NCBI GenBank assembly: GCA_002368355.1
Contig: AP018281.1
Location: 1,054,001-1,118,000 of the forward strand
Reading direction: 5' to 3'
DNA length: 64,000 nucleotides
DNA from: Chondrocystis sp. NIES-4102
GTDB lineage: Bacteria; Cyanobacteriota; Cyanobacteriia; Cyanobacteriales; Xenococcaceae
Both the position numbers and the translations under genes were made by a program. A model generated the notes under the pieces. The model was not told the DNA's origin. It saw only the letters and a program-made list of their open reading frames with translations, and searched no databases. Shown here in pieces: positions 41,631 to 51,226 of the stretch. How positions within the stretch are numbered: the first letter of the stretch is position 1; every line of letters starts with the position of its first letter.

Positions 41631-43889
41631 ATGGCTAATAAACCCCCTTCTGGTAATCGAAATTCTGCCTCTGGCGTTACTAAAGCCGTCACCCAAGCAG
41701 TACAAAGATTTCAGGCAAAAGTAAACTTTAATCCTGCCAATTTCCAATCAGGTAGAGCGACTCCCGAATTAAGAATTAAACAAGCCAATGGACAAGAACA
41801 AACTTATCCCTTAGTTGGCGATCGCTATACCTTGGGGCGTAGTTCTCGTTGTGACATTAGTATTCGCAATCCAGTTGTTAGCCAAACTCATTTAACTATT
41901 AAACGTAATCGTAAACAACCGCGTTCATTTATCGTAGAAGATGAAAACTCTACCAACGGTATCTATCGGGGGAAACGTCGTTTTAAATCCTTTTCCCTCT
42001 TTCATGGCGAAAGTTTTACCTTGGGGCCGCCAGAATTAGCAGCAGGGATTACTATTCAATACTATAATCCTCCCCCACTATGGTTATATCTTAGTCGTTA
42101 TTCCCTTTACGGTTTAGGAGGCGTATTAGGACTACTATTAATAATATTAACTGTAGAATGGCTCAAAGTACCTGTATATCCAATACCTAAAGAATCAACC
42201 CTGCCCGTAATAGTATACGCGGGTGACGGCGAAACCCCAATCAATCCCACTGCTCAAAATAGTACCCATCGAGAATTAAAAAATCTTAGAGATTTCTCCC
42301 CCTATTTACCCCAGGCGTTAATAGCCTCAGAAGACAGTCGCTTTTACTGGCATTTTGGGGTAGATCCCATTGGTATTACTAGAGCAGTGGTAATTAATCT
42401 TACCTCATCCGAATTACGCCAAGGAGCAAGCACTCTAACTCAACAATTAGCCCGTAGTCTGTTTCCCGAAGTAGGCAGACAAAATACCGCAGGGCGCAAA
42501 ATTAGAGAGATGATTGTCGCCTTAAAGTTAGAGACTTTTTATAGCAAAGATTTTATTTTAAAAACTTATCTCAATCGTGTTTATCTAGGAATTGGTAGTT
42601 ATGGATTTGAAGATGCTGCTCAATTCTACTTTGAAAAGTCGGCAGCAGATTTAGATCTTTCAGAAGCTGCTACCTTGGTGGCAATATTACCAGCCCCCAA
42701 CCTATACAATCCTGTTAAAGATTACGAGACAGCAGTAGGACTACGCAATCGTATTATCGATCGCATGGTTAAAATGGGTATGGTAGACGAAACAGAAGCA
42801 GAAAGAGCTAGGCGATCGCGCATTGAAGTTAGCCCCGAAGCCCGTAATACTTTTTCTAATACCGTTGCTCCCTATTTCTACAGTTATGTATTAGATGAAC
42901 TACAAGCACTTTTAGGTTCGGAAGTCGCCCAGGAAGGCAATTTTATCGTCGAAACCGCTTTAAATCCCCAACTACAGCAACAAGCAGAAAACGCCTTAAA
43001 ATATTCAATTAATAACGATGGACAACGCTATGGATACAGTCAAGGAGCGATCGTTACTTTAGATAGTCGTAATGGTAATATCCTTTCTCTAGTTGGGGGA
43101 GTAAACTACGATCAAAGTCAATTCAATCGTGTAATTCAGGCAAAAAGACAACCAGGATCAACATTTAAAATCTTTACCTATGCTGCTGCTCTCGAACAAG
43201 GTATTAACCCCAATACTAAGTACTCCTGCGCCCCTGTACTTTGGAAAGGGCAACAATACCGTGGATGTGAAAGGAGTGTGGGAGATATTGATATGTATCG
43301 CGGACTAGCTCAGTCTGAAAATGTTACCGTCTTAAGAATTGCTCAAGATGTAGGATTAGATCAAGTTATTGAAACCGCTAAACGTTTAGGAGTAACATCT
43401 CCCCTAGCAGCAACCCCAGGGTTAGTAATTGGACAAAGCGAAACCAACGTTTTAGAAATGACTGGAGCTTATGCAACCATTGCTAATGATGGTATTTGGA
43501 ATAAACCCCACGCTATTAATAGAATTCTAGATGGGAGTGATTGCCAAAATCCTAGCCAGCGCGATACCTGTCGGGAAATCTATGTGTTTGAAGATGATCA
43601 GCAAACCTATCGAGATGTCATTGATCAAGATGTTACCGAGCAACTTACAGATATGTTGCGAGCCGCAGTTGAGGAGGGTACAGGTAAAGCTGCTTATTTA
43701 AACGGCGATGAAGCAGGTAAAACTGGCACAACTGATAATAATGTAGATCTGTGGTTTATTGGGTATCTGCCTAAAAAAGACTTGGTAACAGGGGTTTGGT
43801 TGGGCAACGATGATAATTCTCCCACAACGGGTAGTAGTTATCAAGCAGCTAGTCTTTGGGGTAGATATATGAAATCTGTTAGTAATTAA
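41631..43889 (+). CDS. Class A penicillin-binding protein with N-terminal FHA domain
   Basis: 752 residues. An FHA domain (about 55-125: YTLGRSSRCDISIRNPVVSQ, ENSTNGIYRGKRR) is followed by one membrane helix (about 150-172), a GT51 glycosyltransferase (catalytic E234 in SEDSRFYWHFG, then GASTLTQQLARSLF) and a transpeptidase with S510 in PGSTFKIF, the SEN motif in QSENV and KTGT at 697-700. The FHA domain would bind phosphothreonine on the cytoplasmic side, hinting at control by Ser/Thr kinases. It polymerises and cross-links peptidoglycan. Confidence 0.93.
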   Translation: MANKPPSGNRNSASGVTKAVTQAVQRFQAKVNFNPANFQSGRATPELRIKQANGQEQTYPLVGDRYTLGRSSRCDISIRNPVVSQTHLTIKRNRKQPRSFIVEDENSTNGIYRGKRRFKSFSLFHGESFTLGPPELAAGITIQYYNPPPLWLYLSRYSLYGLGGVLGLLLIILTVEWLKVPVYPIPKESTLPVIVYAGDGETPINPTAQNSTHRELKNLRDFSPYLPQALIASEDSRFYWHFGVDPIGITRAVVINLTSSELRQGASTLTQQLARSLFPEVGRQNTAGRKIREMIVALKLETFYSKDFILKTYLNRVYLGIGSYGFEDAAQFYFEKSAADLDLSEAATLVAILPAPNLYNPVKDYETAVGLRNRIIDRMVKMGMVDETEAERARRSRIEVSPEARNTFSNTVAPYFYSYVLDELQALLGSEVAQEGNFIVETALNPQLQQQAENALKYSINNDGQRYGYSQGAIVTLDSRNGNILSLVGGVNYDQSQFNRVIQAKRQPGSTFKIFTYAAALEQGINPNTKYSCAPVLWKGQQYRGCERSVGDIDMYRGLAQSENVTVLRIAQDVGLDQVIETAKRLGVTSPLAATPGLVIGQSETNVLEMTGAYATIANDGIWNKPHAINRILDGSDCQNPSQRDTCREIYVFEDDQQTYRDVIDQDVTEQLTDMLRAAVEEGTGKAAYLNGDEAGKTGTTDNNVDLWFIGYLPKKDLVTGVWLGNDDNSPTTGSSYQAASLWGRYMKSVSN

Positions 43890-44284
43890 ATAAACTTTTG
43901 TTTTAGCCAGTGAAATTATAATTACTATTGATTCCCCAGCTAAACTAAGAGTGTATTTAAATTGCATATTATTCTTTTATAAAATCAGGTTGAAACCCTT
44001 ATCCCCCCTCCCCTCTGCTGATACTAAATCCTGTTTAGATACGCTATTTAAAAATTGATGTACGCCGAAGGTAGTAGGCAGGTTTACACTACGCACGCTT
44101 GGTTTTAGACTAATTAAAATTACAGATCGATCTTATGTTTTGGTAATCGGATTCCTCCTTTCTCCTTTCTCCTTTCTCCTGACTCCTGACTCCTCCTCCT
44201 TTCTCCTGACTCCTTTCTCCTTTCTCCTGACTCCTTTCTCCTTTCTCCTTTCTCATTAAATGCCTAACAGCTTATTATTTTTAG
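43890..44284. repeat. 395-bp gap with TTTCTCC/CTGACTC heptamers
   Basis: No gene. 43890-44150 is AT-rich unassigned DNA. From 44153 to 44254 the heptamers TTTCTCC and TGACTCC alternate. The tract ends 30 bp before the in-frame stop codon (44282-44284) that bounds the open frame of the next, 5'-truncated gene. Confidence 0.85.
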
Positions 44285-45001
44285 GTAAATTCAAGTATTT
44301 GGTCAACAGATGCACCTCTATTAACTAAACCTGGTATTGATTCGGCTACTTGGGTTGAAACTCCTGCCAATAGCCCTTTTAGAATTGCTAATTCTGCTGC
44401 TAGCCAAGAAAGACAAAGCTGGTTAGAAGCTTTACCGATAAAAGAGCGATTACTCGAAGGGTACGCTTTGCGATCGCAAACTATCACGACGGATAATAAT
44501 CGCACTTATCAGCTTTCGGTAGTAGATCTTGCCCCTACTGTACAGGAATTTTGTACCGCCACACCAGGAGGCAAAGAAACCTGTTTAGTTACACCCTATC
44601 TGGGAAAATTGTTATGGTTTCCCACTCTAGTAGTAATTATCTTATTAGGAATGGGGGGTTTATGGACAAAGTATTTAATAACTCTTAATAAAAAGTGGAA
44701 ACTTAAAGTTATTTTTGAAGCAGACGAGGATAAGGAGGAACAAATATGCTATCTAAAAAACAAGCAAAAGATTGCCATTGGCGATGATAATTTAAACTCA
44801 ATTTATTGCCCTGGAAATGAAACAAGAGGATATTTACAAAGAAAAGGTAATAACCTTTATATAATTCCTTTAAAAATCCAACCTATTTTTTATCGCCAAC
44901 AACAAGTTACCAATAATTTAGCTATTAAACGTAATAGTTTCCAGATAAATTATCCTTTAGGAACTGAAAACTATCCTCTCACGATTAAAATAACTAAATA
45001 A
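44285..45001 (+). pseudogene. 5'-truncated membrane protein of the tubulin/ZorAB-like locus
   Basis: The frame is open from 44285, directly after a TAG at 44282, with no ATG until far downstream (first in-frame candidates are GTG 44285 and TTG 44468). It encodes about 238 residues: an extracytoplasmic-like part (WSTDAPLLTKPGIDSATWVE), one membrane helix (LLWFPTLVVIILLGMGGLW) and a cytoplasmic beta-rich domain of about 90 residues. It looks like the C-terminal end of a longer surface protein, possibly a von Willebrand A-type protein; that is a guess. The stop precedes the tubulin-like start by four bases. Confidence 0.6.
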
Positions 45002-45005
45002 GCAG

Positions 45006-48000
45006 ATGAATATTAAGCAAGACTTTCAAGCTCGTAAAATAAGACGCACTATATGTATTGGTCTAGGTGGTACAGGCAAAGATGTTTTAATGCGAATTCG
45101 TCGTTTAATTGTCGATAAATATGGTAGTTTAAAAGCATTACCTACAGTTAGTTTTGTTCATATAGATACAGACAAAGCTAGTAGTAATGTAACAGGATTA
45201 AGAACAGGAAATTTTTATCACGGGGTCGATTTACGTTTCAGTGATGCCGAAAAAGTTGCAGCAACCATGAGTCGAGTGGAAGTTAATAACTTTGTGCAAG
45301 AAATGAGTCGTAAATCAAGTAACTACGAAGGAAGTCCAGGGGTTTATAAAAATATTGAATGCTGGTTTCCACCACAATTATTAAAAGATTTAAAAGCAAT
45401 TGAAGAAGGCGCACAAGGAATTAGACCAGTTGGGAGATTAGCCTTTTTTCATAATTACCGTTCTATTAAAACAGCAATAGAAAAAGCAGAGGAAAGAACT
45501 AGGGGACATTAAAGCAAATTAATTCAACAAGGGTTAATTGTAGAAAATAAACTGAGCATTTTTGTAGTTGGATCATTATGTGGTGGTACGGGTAGTGGCA
45601 TCGTTTTAGATACTGCCTATTGTTTAAGAGCAATGTATGGTGATGATGACGCACAAATTAGCGGTTATTTAGTAATTAGTCCAGAACTTTATGGGGATAC
45701 TCCCAGTATGAATGCTAATGCTTATGCTGCACTTAAAGAGTTAAATTACTATGCAACTGCAGGGACTAATTTTAAAGCCTATTACGATTTACAAAATCTC
45801 CAGTATGTAGAAGAATCTCGTCCACCTTTTGAATATGTTTACTTAGTATCTAACCGTACCAAAAACGATTATAGAGTTTTAGAAAAGAGTAAACTATGTA
45901 ATATTATTGCCCATAAAATTAATTTAGATTTTGCAGGAGAATTATCTTCCGTAATTACAGCCCAACGGGATAACTTTTTGCAGCATTTAATTCAATTAGA
46001 TGAACATCCTCGTCCTAATGTACAACGTTATTTAACCTTTGGTTTAGCAGAAATATATTTCCCTCGTGATCTTGCCGTACAGGTATCTTTAAATCGCATC
46101 AAAATTAAGTCATTGGTACTCTGTTGTTAAACGGCAGAGCCTGCGATGACTGCTTTGCAGTTGGTAAAATATTGGTTACAGGGAGAAGGACAAAGCCCCG
46201 ATGCCAAAATAATACTAGAAAGATTTTTAAATCAATGGTACACAGAAGGAGATAAACAAGAAGGATTAATTAATAAATTGCGTCAAGCAACTACTGATGG
46301 TAATAAAACTTTTAGTAATGCTTTGAGTAGTTGGCGTAATAGTTTAGAAAATAGTATTGCCGAATGGGAAACCAAAGAAGATCGTGAGAATATTATTGCG
46401 CAATTAGCTAGACAAATTAAAGAACAATTTCGTAAAGTTCAACCTGGGGAAAATGATACTAGTCGTGGAGTTTGGTTAACTAATATAAAACAAGCCCGTG
46501 AGGGAATAATCCGAGAATTAACTAAAGATATCGATCGCTTTTTAAGCCAACTACTTCATCCTAGCCAACCAGACTTTTCTCTAGCTAATAGTCGCGCCTG
46601 GTTAGAAGCTTTAACCACAGAATTAAATCGTAACTATCGAGATTTGGAAGCACGGGTAAACAGCAACGACAAAATTTATACCGTAGAAGAAATTGAATTA
46701 AAATGGCAGGATGCAGCCCAAACAATCGAAGACTTGGAAGGTAAAGGTGGGTTATTAGCTTTTAATAAAAAGAAAAAGAATAGCCAGTTTCAAGAAGAAG
46801 CAAGACGTATTATTGGGGAAGTTAATAAATTAATTAAACATAACTTTGATTTCGTTTTAACTCGCGAAACATTAGAGATAATTAAAAGCTTGCAACACTA
46901 CCTTAGTGACTTAAATACTAAAGCGAGTAACTTCTATAACTTACTCAATAATATTCACCAAGCATACGAAAAAGCGGAAATCCAACTAAAGCAATTAAAC
47001 GTCGATGAAATGAGTGGCGAAGCAATTTTTGCCGAAGCAGATACTGAAGATTGCTATCAAAGTCTTTTAAGCGATCGCGATCGTCTAAGTCAACTTACTT
47101 TAGTAACAATTAAAATTACTGACAAGATAGGGTTGGGAGAATCTTTAGCCACCTGTTTAGATGCAGGTTTGATTGATGAAACCCAATTAATTGAAGAAAT
47201 AAATCTAATTGTTGATCGCTTATTTAGCTCACGCAGTCTTGATCGAGTACAGTCGGCGGTTAAACGCTTTCTAGAAAACTATTCTTTAAGCGATCGCTCA
47301 ATTCGACTAGAACAAATACTCAAAGAAGCTGAAGCCCTACTACCATTAAATACTACTGCTCCCTATTTTTATAACGATCCTGGAAAAAATGTCGAGATCA
47401 TCGGTTTCAAAGATGTCGATAACCGCGAAGTTACTCAATTTAAAGAGATCCTCTTTAATGATTTAGGTATTCCTGATAACCAACTAAAAGCAATTCAAGC
47501 AGAAGACGAAATTATCTTTGTCTGTGAATACGCTGCTTTCCCCCTAAGACTAATTCAGGGTTTAACTCAGATGCGACAACACTACCTACGCCAAAAAAGT
47601 TATAGTACAGGTTTTCTACACAATGACTATCGTGTTATCTTTCCCGATATTATTCCTCCAGACGCACAGGAAATGAAACAACTACAGGATATCTTTTATC
47701 CCTCTTTAGCATTTGGCTTACTTCCCTATAACCAGCAAACAGGTTTACATGAATTAGAATATTATGAGCGCTTGCGTGATACCCATCAAATTAATACCCT
47801 TAGTAGTGTGTGGGATGAAGCCTTAGAACAATTAGTCAATGTAAAAGATATGGCGGTGGCTAAAACATCAGAAATTAGATCAAGCTATCCAAGATATTAG
47901 TAATAATCCTGATAAATGGCAATCATACTATTTACCAAAGTTAAGAGAGTTTGTCGCTATAGTAGATGATTTACCTAAAGATCATCCTAATCATTTATAT

Positions 48001-48372
48001 AAAGAAATCGTCGTCGGTACAAGGGAAAGTCTAGATAAAAAAGCTGAAGAGGGAATTATTAATCGTTTTTGGCGACGCATGGAAGAGAAATTTAATCAGC
48101 AACAAGCACAAATTTCATCCTCTACTTATAATCAACAACAAAGATTATCAGCAACAAGTTCGACTATAAATAACACCCCAACACCTAGTAAAGTTAATGA
48201 TAATCCCATACTTACTCAATCTGATGTCATTTTAGATGCAGAAATCTCTATTGATAACCATGTACAAATCAAAGCAAAACTAGCACAATTAAGAAAATTA
48301 AGGGATGAAGGTGTAATTACAGAAGCAGGATTTCAAGCCAAGGAAAAGGAAATTCTAGACTTATATTTCTAA
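45006..48372 (+). pseudogene. Tubulin/FtsZ-like GTPase (Tubulin_2 type) with C-terminal SHOCT motif, broken
   Basis: The full frame would give about 1,120 residues. The N-terminal GTPase begins RRTICIGLGGTGKDVLM; the tubulin signature loop reads GGTGSG at 45582-45599. A long helical middle (about 380-960) and a C-terminal SHOCT-like motif (KLAQLRKLRDEGVITEAGF) follow. Lesions: in-frame TAA at 45510-45512, just before the signature loop; in-frame TAA at 46128-46130 inside a short insertion-like segment; and an extra base in an A-run at 47862-47865, after which the frame continues as KLDQAIQDISNN. The rest is well preserved, so inactivation looks recent, unless some lesions are sequencing errors. 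Confidence 0.8.
46101..46145. repeat. Insertion-like segment with inverted repeat in the tubulin-like gene
   Basis: CTCTG at 46119-46123 pairs with CAGAG at 46135-46139 around the stop at 46128-46130. The segment encodes residues (KIKSLVLCC) unlike their surroundings, and the coding character resumes at about 46146. The length is about 45 bases, a multiple of three. Borders are approximate. Confidence 0.45.
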
Positions 48373-48406
48373 AGATAATTACTAAACTTATTTAAAAATA
48401 AAGCTA

Positions 48407-50317
48407 ATGCTAAATATTTTAAATATTTTTCCACCTTCTTTAATATTACTAATGCTTACTTTAGTAATTATACCTACTGCGATCGCTATATTATTACGTA
48501 AATCTCTTTATCGCTATTTAATAGATTCAGCCAATAAAGTATCCAGGTTACTAAGCTATGAAACAAGAGGTAAACAACCACAAATTGTCGAAAATTTAGA
48601 AGCTAGATTTAAACAAGCTAGTCTAAAACTAGAACAAGTAAATACTATTGCTTTAATTGACGGTTTATATAGTCAGGAAAAATTAAACTTTTTAGGCATA
48701 TCTCTACGTTGCGAACAATGGGATTTTTTTTGTCAGACATTACCTAATTTATTATTAGCTTTTGGTTTACTGGGAACTTTTTTTGGTATTAGTGCTAACT
48801 TATATAATCTTAGTCAAACCATTAATCAAAATACTACAGATCTTGATAATTTAATAGAGCAATTACAAATACCATTACAAAATATGGGTATTGCCTTTTC
48901 TACTAGCTTGGCTGCTATATTATGTAGTTCCATTTTGATTATACTCAACTTACGATATAATACAAATTTTGCCAAATCTCTCCTAATTAGTTCTCTAGAA
49001 GACTATCTTGATAACATTTTTAAAATCAATGTTCAGGGTGACACTCGTTTAGATAAAGCTGTCGATCGCATGGTTAAACAACAGCAAGAGTTTTTAGAAA
49101 GATTTCACGTTAAAGTAGGAGAAGTGTTAGAAACTACTATAGGAAATGCTGCGAGTAAAATGGTAGCTGCTAATCAAGGTTTTCAAAATAATGTTGATAG
49201 TTTAGTTAACAGGTTTAACGATATATCTAGTTCTATAGCAACAGGTACTAATAGTTTTCAAGAATCAGCTTTTACCCTCAAAGAACAAATACAAACTGTC
49301 AATAAAATAGTACCTACATTTGAAACCGCAGCTAATAAAATTGAATCTAGTTCCCAAAAATATTTACAAGCTGCAGAAAAAATAGAAGCAAGTAAATTTT
49401 CCGCTCATTTAGAAAATCTTACTGCTGATTTAGCCAACACCCAAAAAGCTTTTTCTCAGTCTACAGCTTTCTTAGGTAATCAAGTACAAAAAATCACTGA
49501 TAACTATCAACAAGTAACTGAATTAGCCCAACAAGTTTATACACAGTTACAAACCACCTCGAATAAACTAGAATCTAGTGCGGTAGGTTTTATTGAAGCA
49601 GCCGAAATATTTAAACAAACCGACTTCGCCGATAAATTAACCACTGCAACTACAGAATTAGTAAATATTCCTCAGCAATTTAATCAATCAACTGCTATTT
49701 TACACCAATCAACTGATGCTTTAGGTAAAACGATTGACAATATTAATATCTTTACTCAACAAACCAATAGTTTAATCGAGCAGGTAAATAAACTTAATCA
49801 TAAATCTAGTCAATTACTAGAAAAAAGTGAGCATAATATTCAACAAGAAATTACTAGCTTAGAAAATATTAAATCCGAACTACATAGTGTTGTAACCAAC
49901 CTGTCCGAACATAAAAAGCAGGTAAATATCGGTCTGATGAACTTTGGAGAAAAAATATTTACAAGCTTTGAGAAGCAAACAGAAAACAATATTATAGAAC
50001 TAAAAAAAATAACATCAGGAATTAACAATAATCTCAATTCCCTGCAACAAAACTATTCCATAATAGCCAAACTCATCAAGAATCTAGAAGACTATCAAAA
50101 CAATTTCCAATCAATTAATTCCAAAATAGCCAGCAGGGCAGAACAACAAGAAAAACAAAGAAATTCAGATCAACAAGGAATTGTCATGATGAGCGAGCGA
50201 TTATTTACAAGTTTTGAACAGCGATCGCAAAATAACACTCAAGAAATAATGAAACTAACAGCCGAATTAAAACAAATAGCTAACCAAATTAATAACCTAA
50301 TCAAAGTAATTAAGTAA
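48407..50317 (+). CDS. ZorA-like MotA/TolQ/ExbB channel protein with long coiled-coil tail
   Basis: 636 residues. TM1 at about 11-31, then a cytoplasmic segment, then the MotA/TolQ core with two helices: NLLLAFGLLGTFFGI at about 114-128 and GIAFSTSLAAILCSSILII at about 161-179. The remaining 450 residues are almost wholly helical heptads projecting into the cytoplasm. This three-helix plus long tail layout is that of ZorA in Zorya systems and is far longer than MotA, TolQ or ExbB. Such proteins form a proton-driven pentamer around a dimer of OmpA-like partners. The gene is intact and starts 34 bases after the tubulin-like gene. Confidence 0.82.
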   Translation: MLNILNIFPPSLILLMLTLVIIPTAIAILLRKSLYRYLIDSANKVSRLLSYETRGKQPQIVENLEARFKQASLKLEQVNTIALIDGLYSQEKLNFLGISLRCEQWDFFCQTLPNLLLAFGLLGTFFGISANLYNLSQTINQNTTDLDNLIEQLQIPLQNMGIAFSTSLAAILCSSILIILNLRYNTNFAKSLLISSLEDYLDNIFKINVQGDTRLDKAVDRMVKQQQEFLERFHVKVGEVLETTIGNAASKMVAANQGFQNNVDSLVNRFNDISSSIATGTNSFQESAFTLKEQIQTVNKIVPTFETAANKIESSSQKYLQAAEKIEASKFSAHLENLTADLANTQKAFSQSTAFLGNQVQKITDNYQQVTELAQQVYTQLQTTSNKLESSAVGFIEAAEIFKQTDFADKLTTATTELVNIPQQFNQSTAILHQSTDALGKTIDNINIFTQQTNSLIEQVNKLNHKSSQLLEKSEHNIQQEITSLENIKSELHSVVTNLSEHKKQVNIGLMNFGEKIFTSFEKQTENNIIELKKITSGINNNLNSLQQNYSIIAKLIKNLEDYQNNFQSINSKIASRAEQQEKQRNSDQQGIVMMSERLFTSFEQRSQNNTQEIMKLTAELKQIANQINNLIKVIK

Positions 50318-50581
50318 CCTAAACTATCAAGAAATAAGGCAAATTAGGAAATATTAAATAATACCATTTCTTAAGCAGTAGCCAAGGATATTGATAATAG
50401 ACTCCCCATTCCCCTATCCTGTCTCCAGACTCCTGATTTGCGGTTGCGTAGCTGTCGTAGACATAGCTTATCCTTGCTTGACTCCCCCCTCCTGTCTCCC
50501 CCCTCCTGTCTCCCGTCTTCCCGTCTCCTGTCTCCCCCCTCCTGACTCCTGTCTCCTAACTCACAATTAATCTAAGAAAAT
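50318..50581. repeat. STRR tract between the ZorA-like and ZorB-like genes
   Basis: From about 50416 to 50562 the sequence is made of CTCCTGT, CTCCTGA and CTCCCCC-type heptamers. A 40-bp unrelated segment (GCGTAGCTGTCGTAGACATA near 50444) interrupts it, resembling small dispersed repeats known from other cyanobacteria. No coding sequence is seen. Confidence 0.82.
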
Positions 50582-51226
50582 ATGTCTAGAAAATCCTTAT
50601 ATACATCAAATCCCACCCAAGAAGCAATGGGCATTTTTCAATCCTTTACTGATTTAATGTCCAATGCTTTTATGATTTTATGTTTATTTTTATTACTAGT
50701 ACTATTGCAATCCCAAAAACTCAATCAAGACCTAAAACAAGCAAACAAGCGATTACAATCAGCCTCACCAATTGTAATAGATGAAAGTTCAGGAAACTTT
50801 AAATTTAAATCAGGAAGTGCCGAACTAAATCCACAACTAAAAAACTATATATCAACTAAAATAAGCCCAGAAATAAACAAAACATTACAAGAGCGAGAAA
50901 TAGATTTCATTCAAATAATTGGACATACAGATGGAGAAGGAACTAAACAAAATAGTAACCTCGATAAAACCTTAGAAACCGTCGCTCAAGGAACACAACC
51001 AGTTAGTAAACTATCAGCAGGTTCAAATGCAGATTTAGGACTGATGAGAGCCTTAGCAGTAGTACAAGAATTACAAAAAACAGGCTTAAAAAACGTAGAA
51101 TTTAGAGCTTATTCTGCTGCTCAACTATATTTACCTTCAGGACATTTAGCATCAATAGATCGTCAACCCGATGAAACCAGACGCAGAATAGAAATCCGTT
51201 TTATCCCTCCAGGTCAATCAAAATAG
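50582..51226 (+). CDS. ZorB-like MotB/OmpA-family protein
   Basis: 214 residues. A short cytoplasmic start is followed by one membrane helix (about 24-44) preceded by FTDLM; Asp24 corresponds in position to the proton-carrying Asp of MotB-type stators. The periplasmic part has an OmpA peptidoglycan-binding domain: FKFKSGSAELNPQLKNYI, IQIIGHTDGEG, NADLGLMRALAVVQELQ and RRRIEIRF. This is the partner expected for the channel protein encoded at 48407, anchoring it to the cell wall. An internal insert of about 30 residues after HTDGEG is unusual. Intact gene, 264 bp after its partner. Confidence 0.83.
   Translation: MSRKSLYTSNPTQEAMGIFQSFTDLMSNAFMILCLFLLLVLLQSQKLNQDLKQANKRLQSASPIVIDESSGNFKFKSGSAELNPQLKNYISTKISPEINKTLQEREIDFIQIIGHTDGEGTKQNSNLDKTLETVAQGTQPVSKLSAGSNADLGLMRALAVVQELQKTGLKNVEFRAYSAAQLYLPSGHLASIDRQPDETRRRIEIRFIPPGQSK

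What the first reader, a model, noticed from the sequence alone, without database searches (positions are those of the whole stretch)
44285..51226. Tubulin-like GTPase next to a ZorA/ZorB-like motor: a possible undescribed system
Four consecutive same-strand genes: a membrane protein that has lost its 5' end, a Tubulin_2-type GTPase with SHOCT tail, a MotA/TolQ-like protein with a 450-residue coiled-coil tail, and a one-TM OmpA protein with a membrane-proximal Asp. The last two have the layout of ZorA and ZorB, whose proton-driven motor and tail trigger Zorya anti-phage defence. The usual Zorya effectors (ZorC, ZorD, ZorE) are absent; a tubulin-like GTPase stands in their place. This suggests a wall-anchored motor that signals to, or is organised by, a cytoplasmic filament. 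The defence role is inference; a transport or surface-assembly role is also possible.
Basis: partly seen in the sequence, partly recalled or inferred. Interest (0 to 1): 0.85.

Follow-up and report, generated by a model that had tools for sequence, protein, structure and literature searches.

The report
Tubulin-like GTPase paired with ion motor
A conserved four-gene cluster, broken in this cyanobacterium but intact in many others, pairs a bacterial tubulin relative with an ion-powered motor fixed to the cell wall; it probably lets a cytoskeletal protein and an envelope motor work together, though nobody has tested what for.

Summary
It has a GAA-to-TAA stop, a 51-bp insertion carrying a second TAA, and a +1 frameshift. 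The first gene has lost the front of its vWA domain. The two motor genes are open. Intact relatives show a tight operon: vWA-TM-FHA protein, FtsZl1/Tubulin_2 GTPase, MotA/ZorA-like channel with coiled-coil tail, one-TM OmpA protein with an invariant TM Asp. 69 of 80 cyanobacterial loci found with the channel protein carry the vWA and tubulin genes on the same strand. Three Deinococcus plasmids repeat tubulin-channel-OmpA, so the link crosses phyla. Both motor proteins match ZorA/ZorB best among solved structures, and the tree puts them on the ZorA side, but as their own clade. They score far below ZorA cut-offs, no Zorya effector is present, and cyanobacterial flanks are housekeeping. Phage defence is therefore unsupported, though not excluded. 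FtsZl1-vWA-OmpA clusters were described in 2010 as a predicted membrane-remodelling system; the unrecognised part is the motor. Likely function: an envelope-anchored ion motor coupled to a tubulin-family polymer.

The parts
44285..45001 (+). Remnant (238 aa) of the vWA-TM-FHA membrane protein ('MEM'). The N-terminal ~150 residues with the MIDAS motif (D39-x-T41-x-S43 in relatives) are gone; the last vWA strand, the TM helix and the FHA-like domain remain.
45006..48372 (+). FtsZl1/Tubulin_2 GTPase gene ('TUB'), a pseudogene in this strain: GTPase domain 45051-46170, helical/coiled-coil middle, C-terminal part, SHOCT-like tail in a shifted frame
   Evidence: intact 1,045-1,130 aa homologues; tubulin fold
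45510..45512 (+). Nonsense lesion: TAA where relatives have GAA or GAG (Glu)
46108..46158 (+). 51-bp insertion (exact edges ambiguous) absent from three relatives, carrying an in-frame TAA at 46128-46130, at the end of the Tubulin_2 domain
47866..47866 (+). Approximate position of a one-base insertion (frameshift) against three relatives
48407..50317 (+). ZorA/MotA-like ion-channel subunit ('ZA', 636 aa): three TM helices, LPNLLLAFGLLGTF motif, invariant T124 and S167 as polar-ring candidates, then a long helical coiled-coil tail
50582..51226 (+). ZorB/MotB-like subunit ('ZB', 214 aa): one TM helix with the FTDLMSNAFM motif and an OmpA-type peptidoglycan-binding domain
50651..50653 (+). Codon of Asp24 in the ZB TM helix, invariant in 13 of 13 aligned homologues; matches the ion-carrying Asp of ZorB/MotB
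   Evidence: role from PMC11890865

Best explanation
The locus is a decaying copy of a widely conserved four-gene module. Shown by sequence or model: (1) ZA and ZB have the parts of an ion-driven motor of the 5:2 (ZorA5B2/MotA5B2) superfamily: three TM helices with conserved Thr/Ser, a one-TM partner with the ion-binding Asp, an OmpA peptidoglycan anchor, and a long cytoplasmic coiled-coil tail on the channel subunit. (2) TUB is a tubulin-superfamily GTPase; its model fits whole tubulins, with a ~370-residue helical insertion between the GTPase/H7 part and the second tubulin domain. (3) MEM is a single-pass membrane protein with a vWA domain on one side and an FHA-like domain on the other. Inferred: ion flow through ZA5ZB2, held by the cell wall, turns or flexes the ZA tail. 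The tail acts on, or is governed by, a TUB assembly, perhaps through the TUB coiled-coil insertion. MEM links or regulates the two. The module thus couples the ion gradient and cell wall to a tubulin-family polymer, most likely to position or drive an envelope assembly or to report envelope state, rather than as a dedicated anti-phage system. In this strain MEM and TUB are broken, so the motor genes are probably orphaned remnants of recent decay.
For: Operon: 69 of 80 loci found with ZA carry MEM and TUB on the same strand, 63 of them ZB too, with median gaps of 18, 78 and 58 nt. In an even sample of 146 genomes, 22 of 32 ZA loci lie under about 4 kb downstream of TUB. The module recurs in Deinococcota as tubulin-ZA-OmpA (ZA profile E 4e-13 to 8e-11). 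Motor-linked TUBs form one clade, motor-free TUBs another, 100/100 support. Motor identity: of solved structures only Zorya chains are convincing matches, ZA to ZorA E 3.4e-7 and ZB to ZorB E 2.1e-6; Asp24, T124 and S167 invariant. Tubulin fold. vWA and FHA: model pLDDT 88.8 and fold matches. Past function: dN/dS about 0.05-0.17 for all window pieces. Against a defence island.
Against: No experiment on any member was found. Contact between the ZA tail and TUB was not modelled. The second tubulin domain sits in model regions of mixed confidence (TUB mean pLDDT 71, patches under 50). MEM topology is unsettled: the residues after the TM are positive, which puts the FHA inside and the vWA outside, but no signal peptide is visible before the vWA. 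Stand-alone ZA-ZB pairs without TUB are common, and one TUB clade has no motor, so each half can work without the other. Deinococcus copies lie on plasmids, which leaves defence possible there.
Confidence: 0.5

Rival explanations
1. A phage-defence system that works like Zorya: the wall-anchored motor senses infection, the ZA tail signals, and TUB with MEM act as effector in place of ZorC/D/E.
For: ZA and ZB are closest to ZorA and ZorB. Deinococcus copies lie on plasmids, one directly after an AAA ATPase plus DUF2357 pair. A motor-free tubulin cluster in Thermales lies beside BrxL. Several cyanobacterial copies are broken, as is common for dispensable genes.
Against: Cyanobacterial flanks are mostly housekeeping, with one clear restriction enzyme among 122 proteins; 8-13 loci, nearly all Nostocales, share housekeeping flanks; ZA absent from 72,556 plasmids; no Zorya effector; the TUB tree largely follows taxonomy.
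Confidence: 0.2
2. A membrane-remodelling system as Makarova and Koonin proposed: TUB deforms or scaffolds membrane, vWA and OmpA proteins are membrane partners, and no motor activity is essential.
For: Published prediction for the FtsZl1 family with vWA and OmpA neighbours.
Against: That paper describes the OmpA partners as beta-barrel porins; ZB has no barrel, but a TM helix with an invariant Asp next to a matching channel subunit, which argues for an energised motor.
Confidence: 0.15
3. A GTPase/tubulin/vWA conflict system of the kind listed by Kaur et al. 2020, in which multimerising tubulins and vWA adaptors set a threshold for an effector.
For: That paper groups tubulin and vWA genes in GTPase-centred conflict systems.
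Against: Those systems are built around a TRAFAC GTPase and variable effectors; here no fifth gene recurs widely across loci.
Confidence: 0.1

Closest known systems
FtsZl1 (Tubulin_2)-centred predicted membrane-remodelling system, Makarova and Koonin 2010 (PMC2875224)
   Same: Same GTPase family, vWA gene next to it, OmpA-family gene in some genomes, cyanobacteria and Deinococcus included.
   Different: That main text names no MotA/ExbB/TolQ protein, and treats OmpA proteins as porin-like. Here the OmpA protein looks like the wall anchor of an ion-driven motor; the vWA protein also has an FHA-like domain; the second tubulin domain appears to be present after a long insertion.
Zorya ZorA5B2 motor (PDB 8VVN, 8VVI, 8QYD; PMC11890865)
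   Same: Three-TM channel with long cytoplasmic tail, one-TM partner with the TM Asp and a peptidoglycan-binding domain; best profile matches of both proteins.
   Different: Far below curated ZorA cut-offs, own clade, no ZorC/D/E/F/G, upstream partners are tubulin and vWA-FHA.
MotAB, TolQR, ExbBD motors
   Same: Superfamily, polar ring plus Asp.
   Different: No profile match among solved structures up to E 1; separated in the tree with 94/100 support.
vWA force transducers next to TolQ-like motors (PMC12204202)
   Same: A vWA membrane protein encoded with a 5:2-type motor.
   Different: There the TM precedes the vWA and bears a motor-binding motif or an Asp; MEM has vWA-TM-FHA order and no conserved Asp or His in the TM. 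No tubulin.
GTPase-tubulin-vWA conflict systems (Kaur et al. 2020, PMC7159879)
   Same: Tubulin-family protein with C-terminal coiled coil, encoded with vWA proteins.
   Different: No TRAFAC GTPase and no variable effectors here; a motor is present.

Membership tests
Zorya | ZorA recognised above curated cut-off | tested here: not met
   Window ZA 30.5/27.5/24 bits against cut-offs 500/100/190; true cyanobacterial ZorA scores 652-776 bits in PADLOC, the window and L061 copies 44-53.
Zorya | ZorB-type partner: one TM with Asp plus OmpA peptidoglycan-binding domain | tested here: met
Zorya | Effector genes ZorC, ZorD, ZorE, ZorF or ZorG next to ZorAB | tested here: not met
   Window neighbours are PBP1A, ABC ATPase, PPDK/GPAT fusion, CNNM, DUF3769 and the four genes themselves show no ZorC-G match; no widely recurrent fifth gene.
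Zorya | Channel subunit falls inside the ZorA clade | tested here: inconclusive
   ZA forms its own clade (99/96) on the ZorA side of a 94/100 split; ZA+ZorA as one clade not rejected, p-AU 0.27. About 100 columns and long branches.
Zorya | Protection against phage | not testable with these tools
   Needs an experiment.
FtsZl1 (Tubulin_2) family | N-terminal Tubulin_2 domain, coiled-coil region, helical C-terminal part | tested here: met
   Pfam E 1.4e-93 for the intact L061 protein; window halves E 1.2e-42 and 3.6e-52; model.
FtsZl1 system of Makarova and Koonin | vWA-domain gene beside the GTPase | tested here: met
   D-x-T-x-S motif invariant; vWA and FHA structures among matches to the model. 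Pfam and the PDB sequence profile did not detect it.
FtsZl1 system of Makarova and Koonin | OmpA-family gene (some genomes) | tested here: met
   Pfam OmpA above cut-off.
FtsZl1 system of Makarova and Koonin | P-loop GTPase or Ser/Thr kinase gene (frequent, not universal) | tested here: not met
   No such recurrent flanking family seen.
MotAB/TolQR/ExbBD | Phylogenetic position with these motors | tested here: not met
   Separated by a 94/100 branch; no PDB profile match up to E 1. Long branches are a caveat.
vWA force transducers (PMC12204202) | TM helix with motor-binding motif or ion-carrying Asp ahead of the vWA domain | tested here: not met
   MEM order is vWA-TM-FHA; no conserved Asp or His in the TM columns.
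GTPase-tubulin conflict systems (PMC7159879) | TRAFAC GTPase gene with tubulin and vWA | tested here: not met
   No such recurrent flanking gene.

The most novel reading that the evidence does not exclude
A tubulin-superfamily polymer in bacteria is mechanically coupled to a wall-anchored, ion-driven rotary-type motor: the motor tail drives, winds or gates a tubulin filament, a cytoskeletal principle that I know from no other cell.
Probability: 0.4. Interest if true: 0.92.

Novelty: new variant of a known kind. Interest (0 to 1): 0.7.

Why it matters
Tubulins and ion-driven 5:2 motors are two of the best-studied force systems of cells, and no held paper that I found joins them in one module. 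I found no experimental function for the FtsZl1 family, described in 2010. Recognising that its common cyanobacterial form (and a Deinococcus form) comes with a dedicated ion motor gives direct tests: one Asp, one GTP site, one operon. It corrects the reading of the OmpA partner as a porin and suggests that FtsZl1 proteins keep a complete tubulin fold, which bears on the open question of whether they polymerise.

Tried and rejected
Sequence profiles of MEM and TUB against solved structures found nothing usable, so structures were predicted. Pfam does not see the vWA domain. The curated ZorA_2 model finds no cyanobacterial protein above cut-off. A first TUB tree held wrong-strand rows and was redone. 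A signal peptide ahead of MEM was sought and not found. That the tubulin gene is merely read through its stops was rejected: three lesions of different kinds, each absent from relatives. The whole-genome search shows no second TUB or MEM. No held paper combining tubulin-like proteins with ZorA/MotA was found; the supplements of the 2010 paper could not be read, so a channel gene may be listed there as an unnamed family.
Full report
What is there. The window lies in a 5.0-Mb cyanobacterial genome (G000:C1:1054001-1118000). ORF and Pfam searches confirm the layout at 44285-51226: a membrane-protein remnant, a Tubulin_2 gene, a channel-like protein with a long helical tail and an OmpA protein. 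The tubulin gene is broken in three ways against three relatives: GAA to TAA at 45510, a 51-bp insertion near 46108-46158 with an in-frame TAA, and one extra base near 47866. The first gene lacks the part that encodes residues 1-149 in a relative, and that part is nowhere else in the genome. No other Tubulin_2 gene was found in the genome. All pieces still show strong past purifying selection, dN/dS about 0.05-0.17 against relatives, so the decay looks recent. Several relatives also have broken copies.

The intact operon. In the relatives the order is MEM (about 375 aa) - TUB (about 1,100 aa) - ZA (500-820 aa) - ZB (205-270 aa). A scan of genome contigs with the ZA core returned 80 cyanobacterial loci in at least seven orders. 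69 have MEM, TUB and ZA on the same strand, 63 also ZB, and 68 have the order MEM-TUB-ZA. Median gaps are 18, 78 and 58 nt. In an even sample of 146 genomes of the phylum, 35 strong Tubulin_2 loci and 32 ZA loci were found; my reading of the two lists is that 22 pairs lie within about 4 kb on one strand. Outside the phylum, plasmids of Deinococcus deserti, D. radiophilus and Deinococcus sp. QL22 carry tubulin-like gene, channel, OmpA gene in the same order (an IS630 element and one further gene intervene in D. radiophilus). Their channel proteins match the cyanobacterial ZA profile at E 4e-13 to 8e-11, and in one the public record already names it MotA/TolQ/ExbB. Their OmpA proteins share the FSDL(M/T) Asp motif but match the ZB profile only weakly, and homology of their upstream membrane protein to MEM was not shown.

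The motor. ZA has three TM helices, the motif LPNLLLAFGLLGTF, and invariant T124 and S167; ZB has an invariant Asp24 in the motif FTDLMSNAFM and an OmpA domain with the usual D..L...RA..V pattern. A profile of ZA against all solved structures gives only ZorA chains with credible scores (8VVN, E 3.4e-7; 8QYK and others near 1e-3), and ZB gives ZorB first (E 2.1e-6) (8VVN and 8VVI are Zorya structures). PADLOC ZorA and ZorB models match at 2.5e-12 and 1.1e-10. A tree of the core (102 columns) splits ExbB, TolQ and E. coli MotA from ZA, ZorA and a MotA-like group with 94/100 support; ZA with its stand-alone paralogues is one clade (99/96). Long branches limit this tree. ZA is not ZorA by curated scores.

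The tubulin. Intact TUB matches Tubulin_2 at 1e-93. Two clades exist in cyanobacteria, split with 100/100 support: motor-linked TUBs with a SHOCT-like tail, and motor-free TUBs, of which the examples inspected have a zinc-ribbon tail (L077) and lie beside a periplasmic-binding protein and a vWA protein (loci L077, L078). Of the 31 rows in the motor-linked clade two have no motor next to them; one of these lies at a contig edge. The AlphaFold model of the motor-linked form has mean pLDDT 71. Structure alignment covers whole tubulins (gamma-tubulin Z 17.4, CetZ Z 16.8, TubZ Z 16.1) with model residues 15 to about 869 on tubulin residues 1 to about 424. Since the Pfam domain ends near residue 370, this means that the second tubulin domain is probably present after a helical insertion of about 370 residues. 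The 2010 paper could not find these elements. Confidence is moderate because part of that region is poorly predicted.

The membrane protein. The MEM model (pLDDT 88.8) has a vWA-like domain, one TM helix and an FHA-like domain; FHA structures match with target TM-scores of 0.6-0.7 and vWA proteins are among the best matches. D39, T41 and S43 of the metal site are invariant.

Function. Flanking genes do not recur widely across distant loci. 122 flanking proteins from about 32 loci are mostly housekeeping, with one BanI-type restriction enzyme as the clear defence gene. Eight to thirteen loci, nearly all Nostocales, share parts of one housekeeping neighbourhood. In the window the operon sits between PBP1A and a GPAT/PPDK fusion. 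The ZA core has no match in 72,556 plasmids, in which true ZorA is found. This argues against a typical mobile defence system in cyanobacteria. It does not exclude defence, least of all in Deinococcus, where copies lie on plasmids. My best explanation is an envelope-anchored ion motor coupled to a tubulin-family polymer through the ZA tail and the TUB insertion; the parts are shown, the coupling is inference.

Prior knowledge. Makarova and Koonin 2010 (PMC2875224) described FtsZl1 with vWA, GTPase and OmpA neighbours as a predicted membrane-remodelling system; their main text has no MotA, ExbB or TolQ. Kaur et al. 2020 (PMC7159879) list tubulin-vWA-GTPase conflict systems. A 2025 paper (PMC12204202) reports vWA proteins with 5:2 motors. 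None of the held papers found joins a tubulin with such a motor.

Noticed in passing
L079:8696-10187 (G000:C1, about 3679414-3680178) and L191, L192: A second, stand-alone ZA-ZB-like motor pair without tubulin is present in nearly all genomes of the window's family; its function is unknown, and the own-genome channel is shorter (258-283 aa) than the 350-390 aa of most relatives.
   Followed up: partly
L196, L197, L204 (Thermus and Meiothermus plasmids): A vWA + tubulin-like + unknown gene cluster lies directly beside BrxL, with HEPN/DUF499, AAA and exonuclease genes nearby: a motor-free tubulin cluster in a defence-like setting.
   Followed up: partly
L186:4700-8912, L188:4475-9036, L187:4284-8349: Zorya type I systems in cyanobacteria (ZorA, ZorB and, in L186 and L188, ZorC by PADLOC), distinct from the tubulin-linked motor.
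   Followed up: partly
L077:6232-12182; L078:7473-13335: Second cyanobacterial FtsZl1 type: periplasmic-binding protein, vWA-like protein and a tubulin-like protein (zinc-ribbon tail in L077), no motor.
   Followed up: partly
44155-44254 and 50482-50557: CTCCTTT/CTCCTGT-like short tandem repeats stand just where the first gene lost its 5' end and in the widened gap between the two motor genes.
   Followed up: partly
41631-43889: Class A penicillin-binding protein with an N-terminal FHA domain directly upstream of the operon.
   Followed up: no
L174-L185 (small-genome relatives in the same phylum, family code f43): About 300-aa MotA-like proteins followed by MotB/ZorB-like genes match the ZorA_2 model at up to 85 bits; they group on the ZorA side of the tree.
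   Followed up: partly
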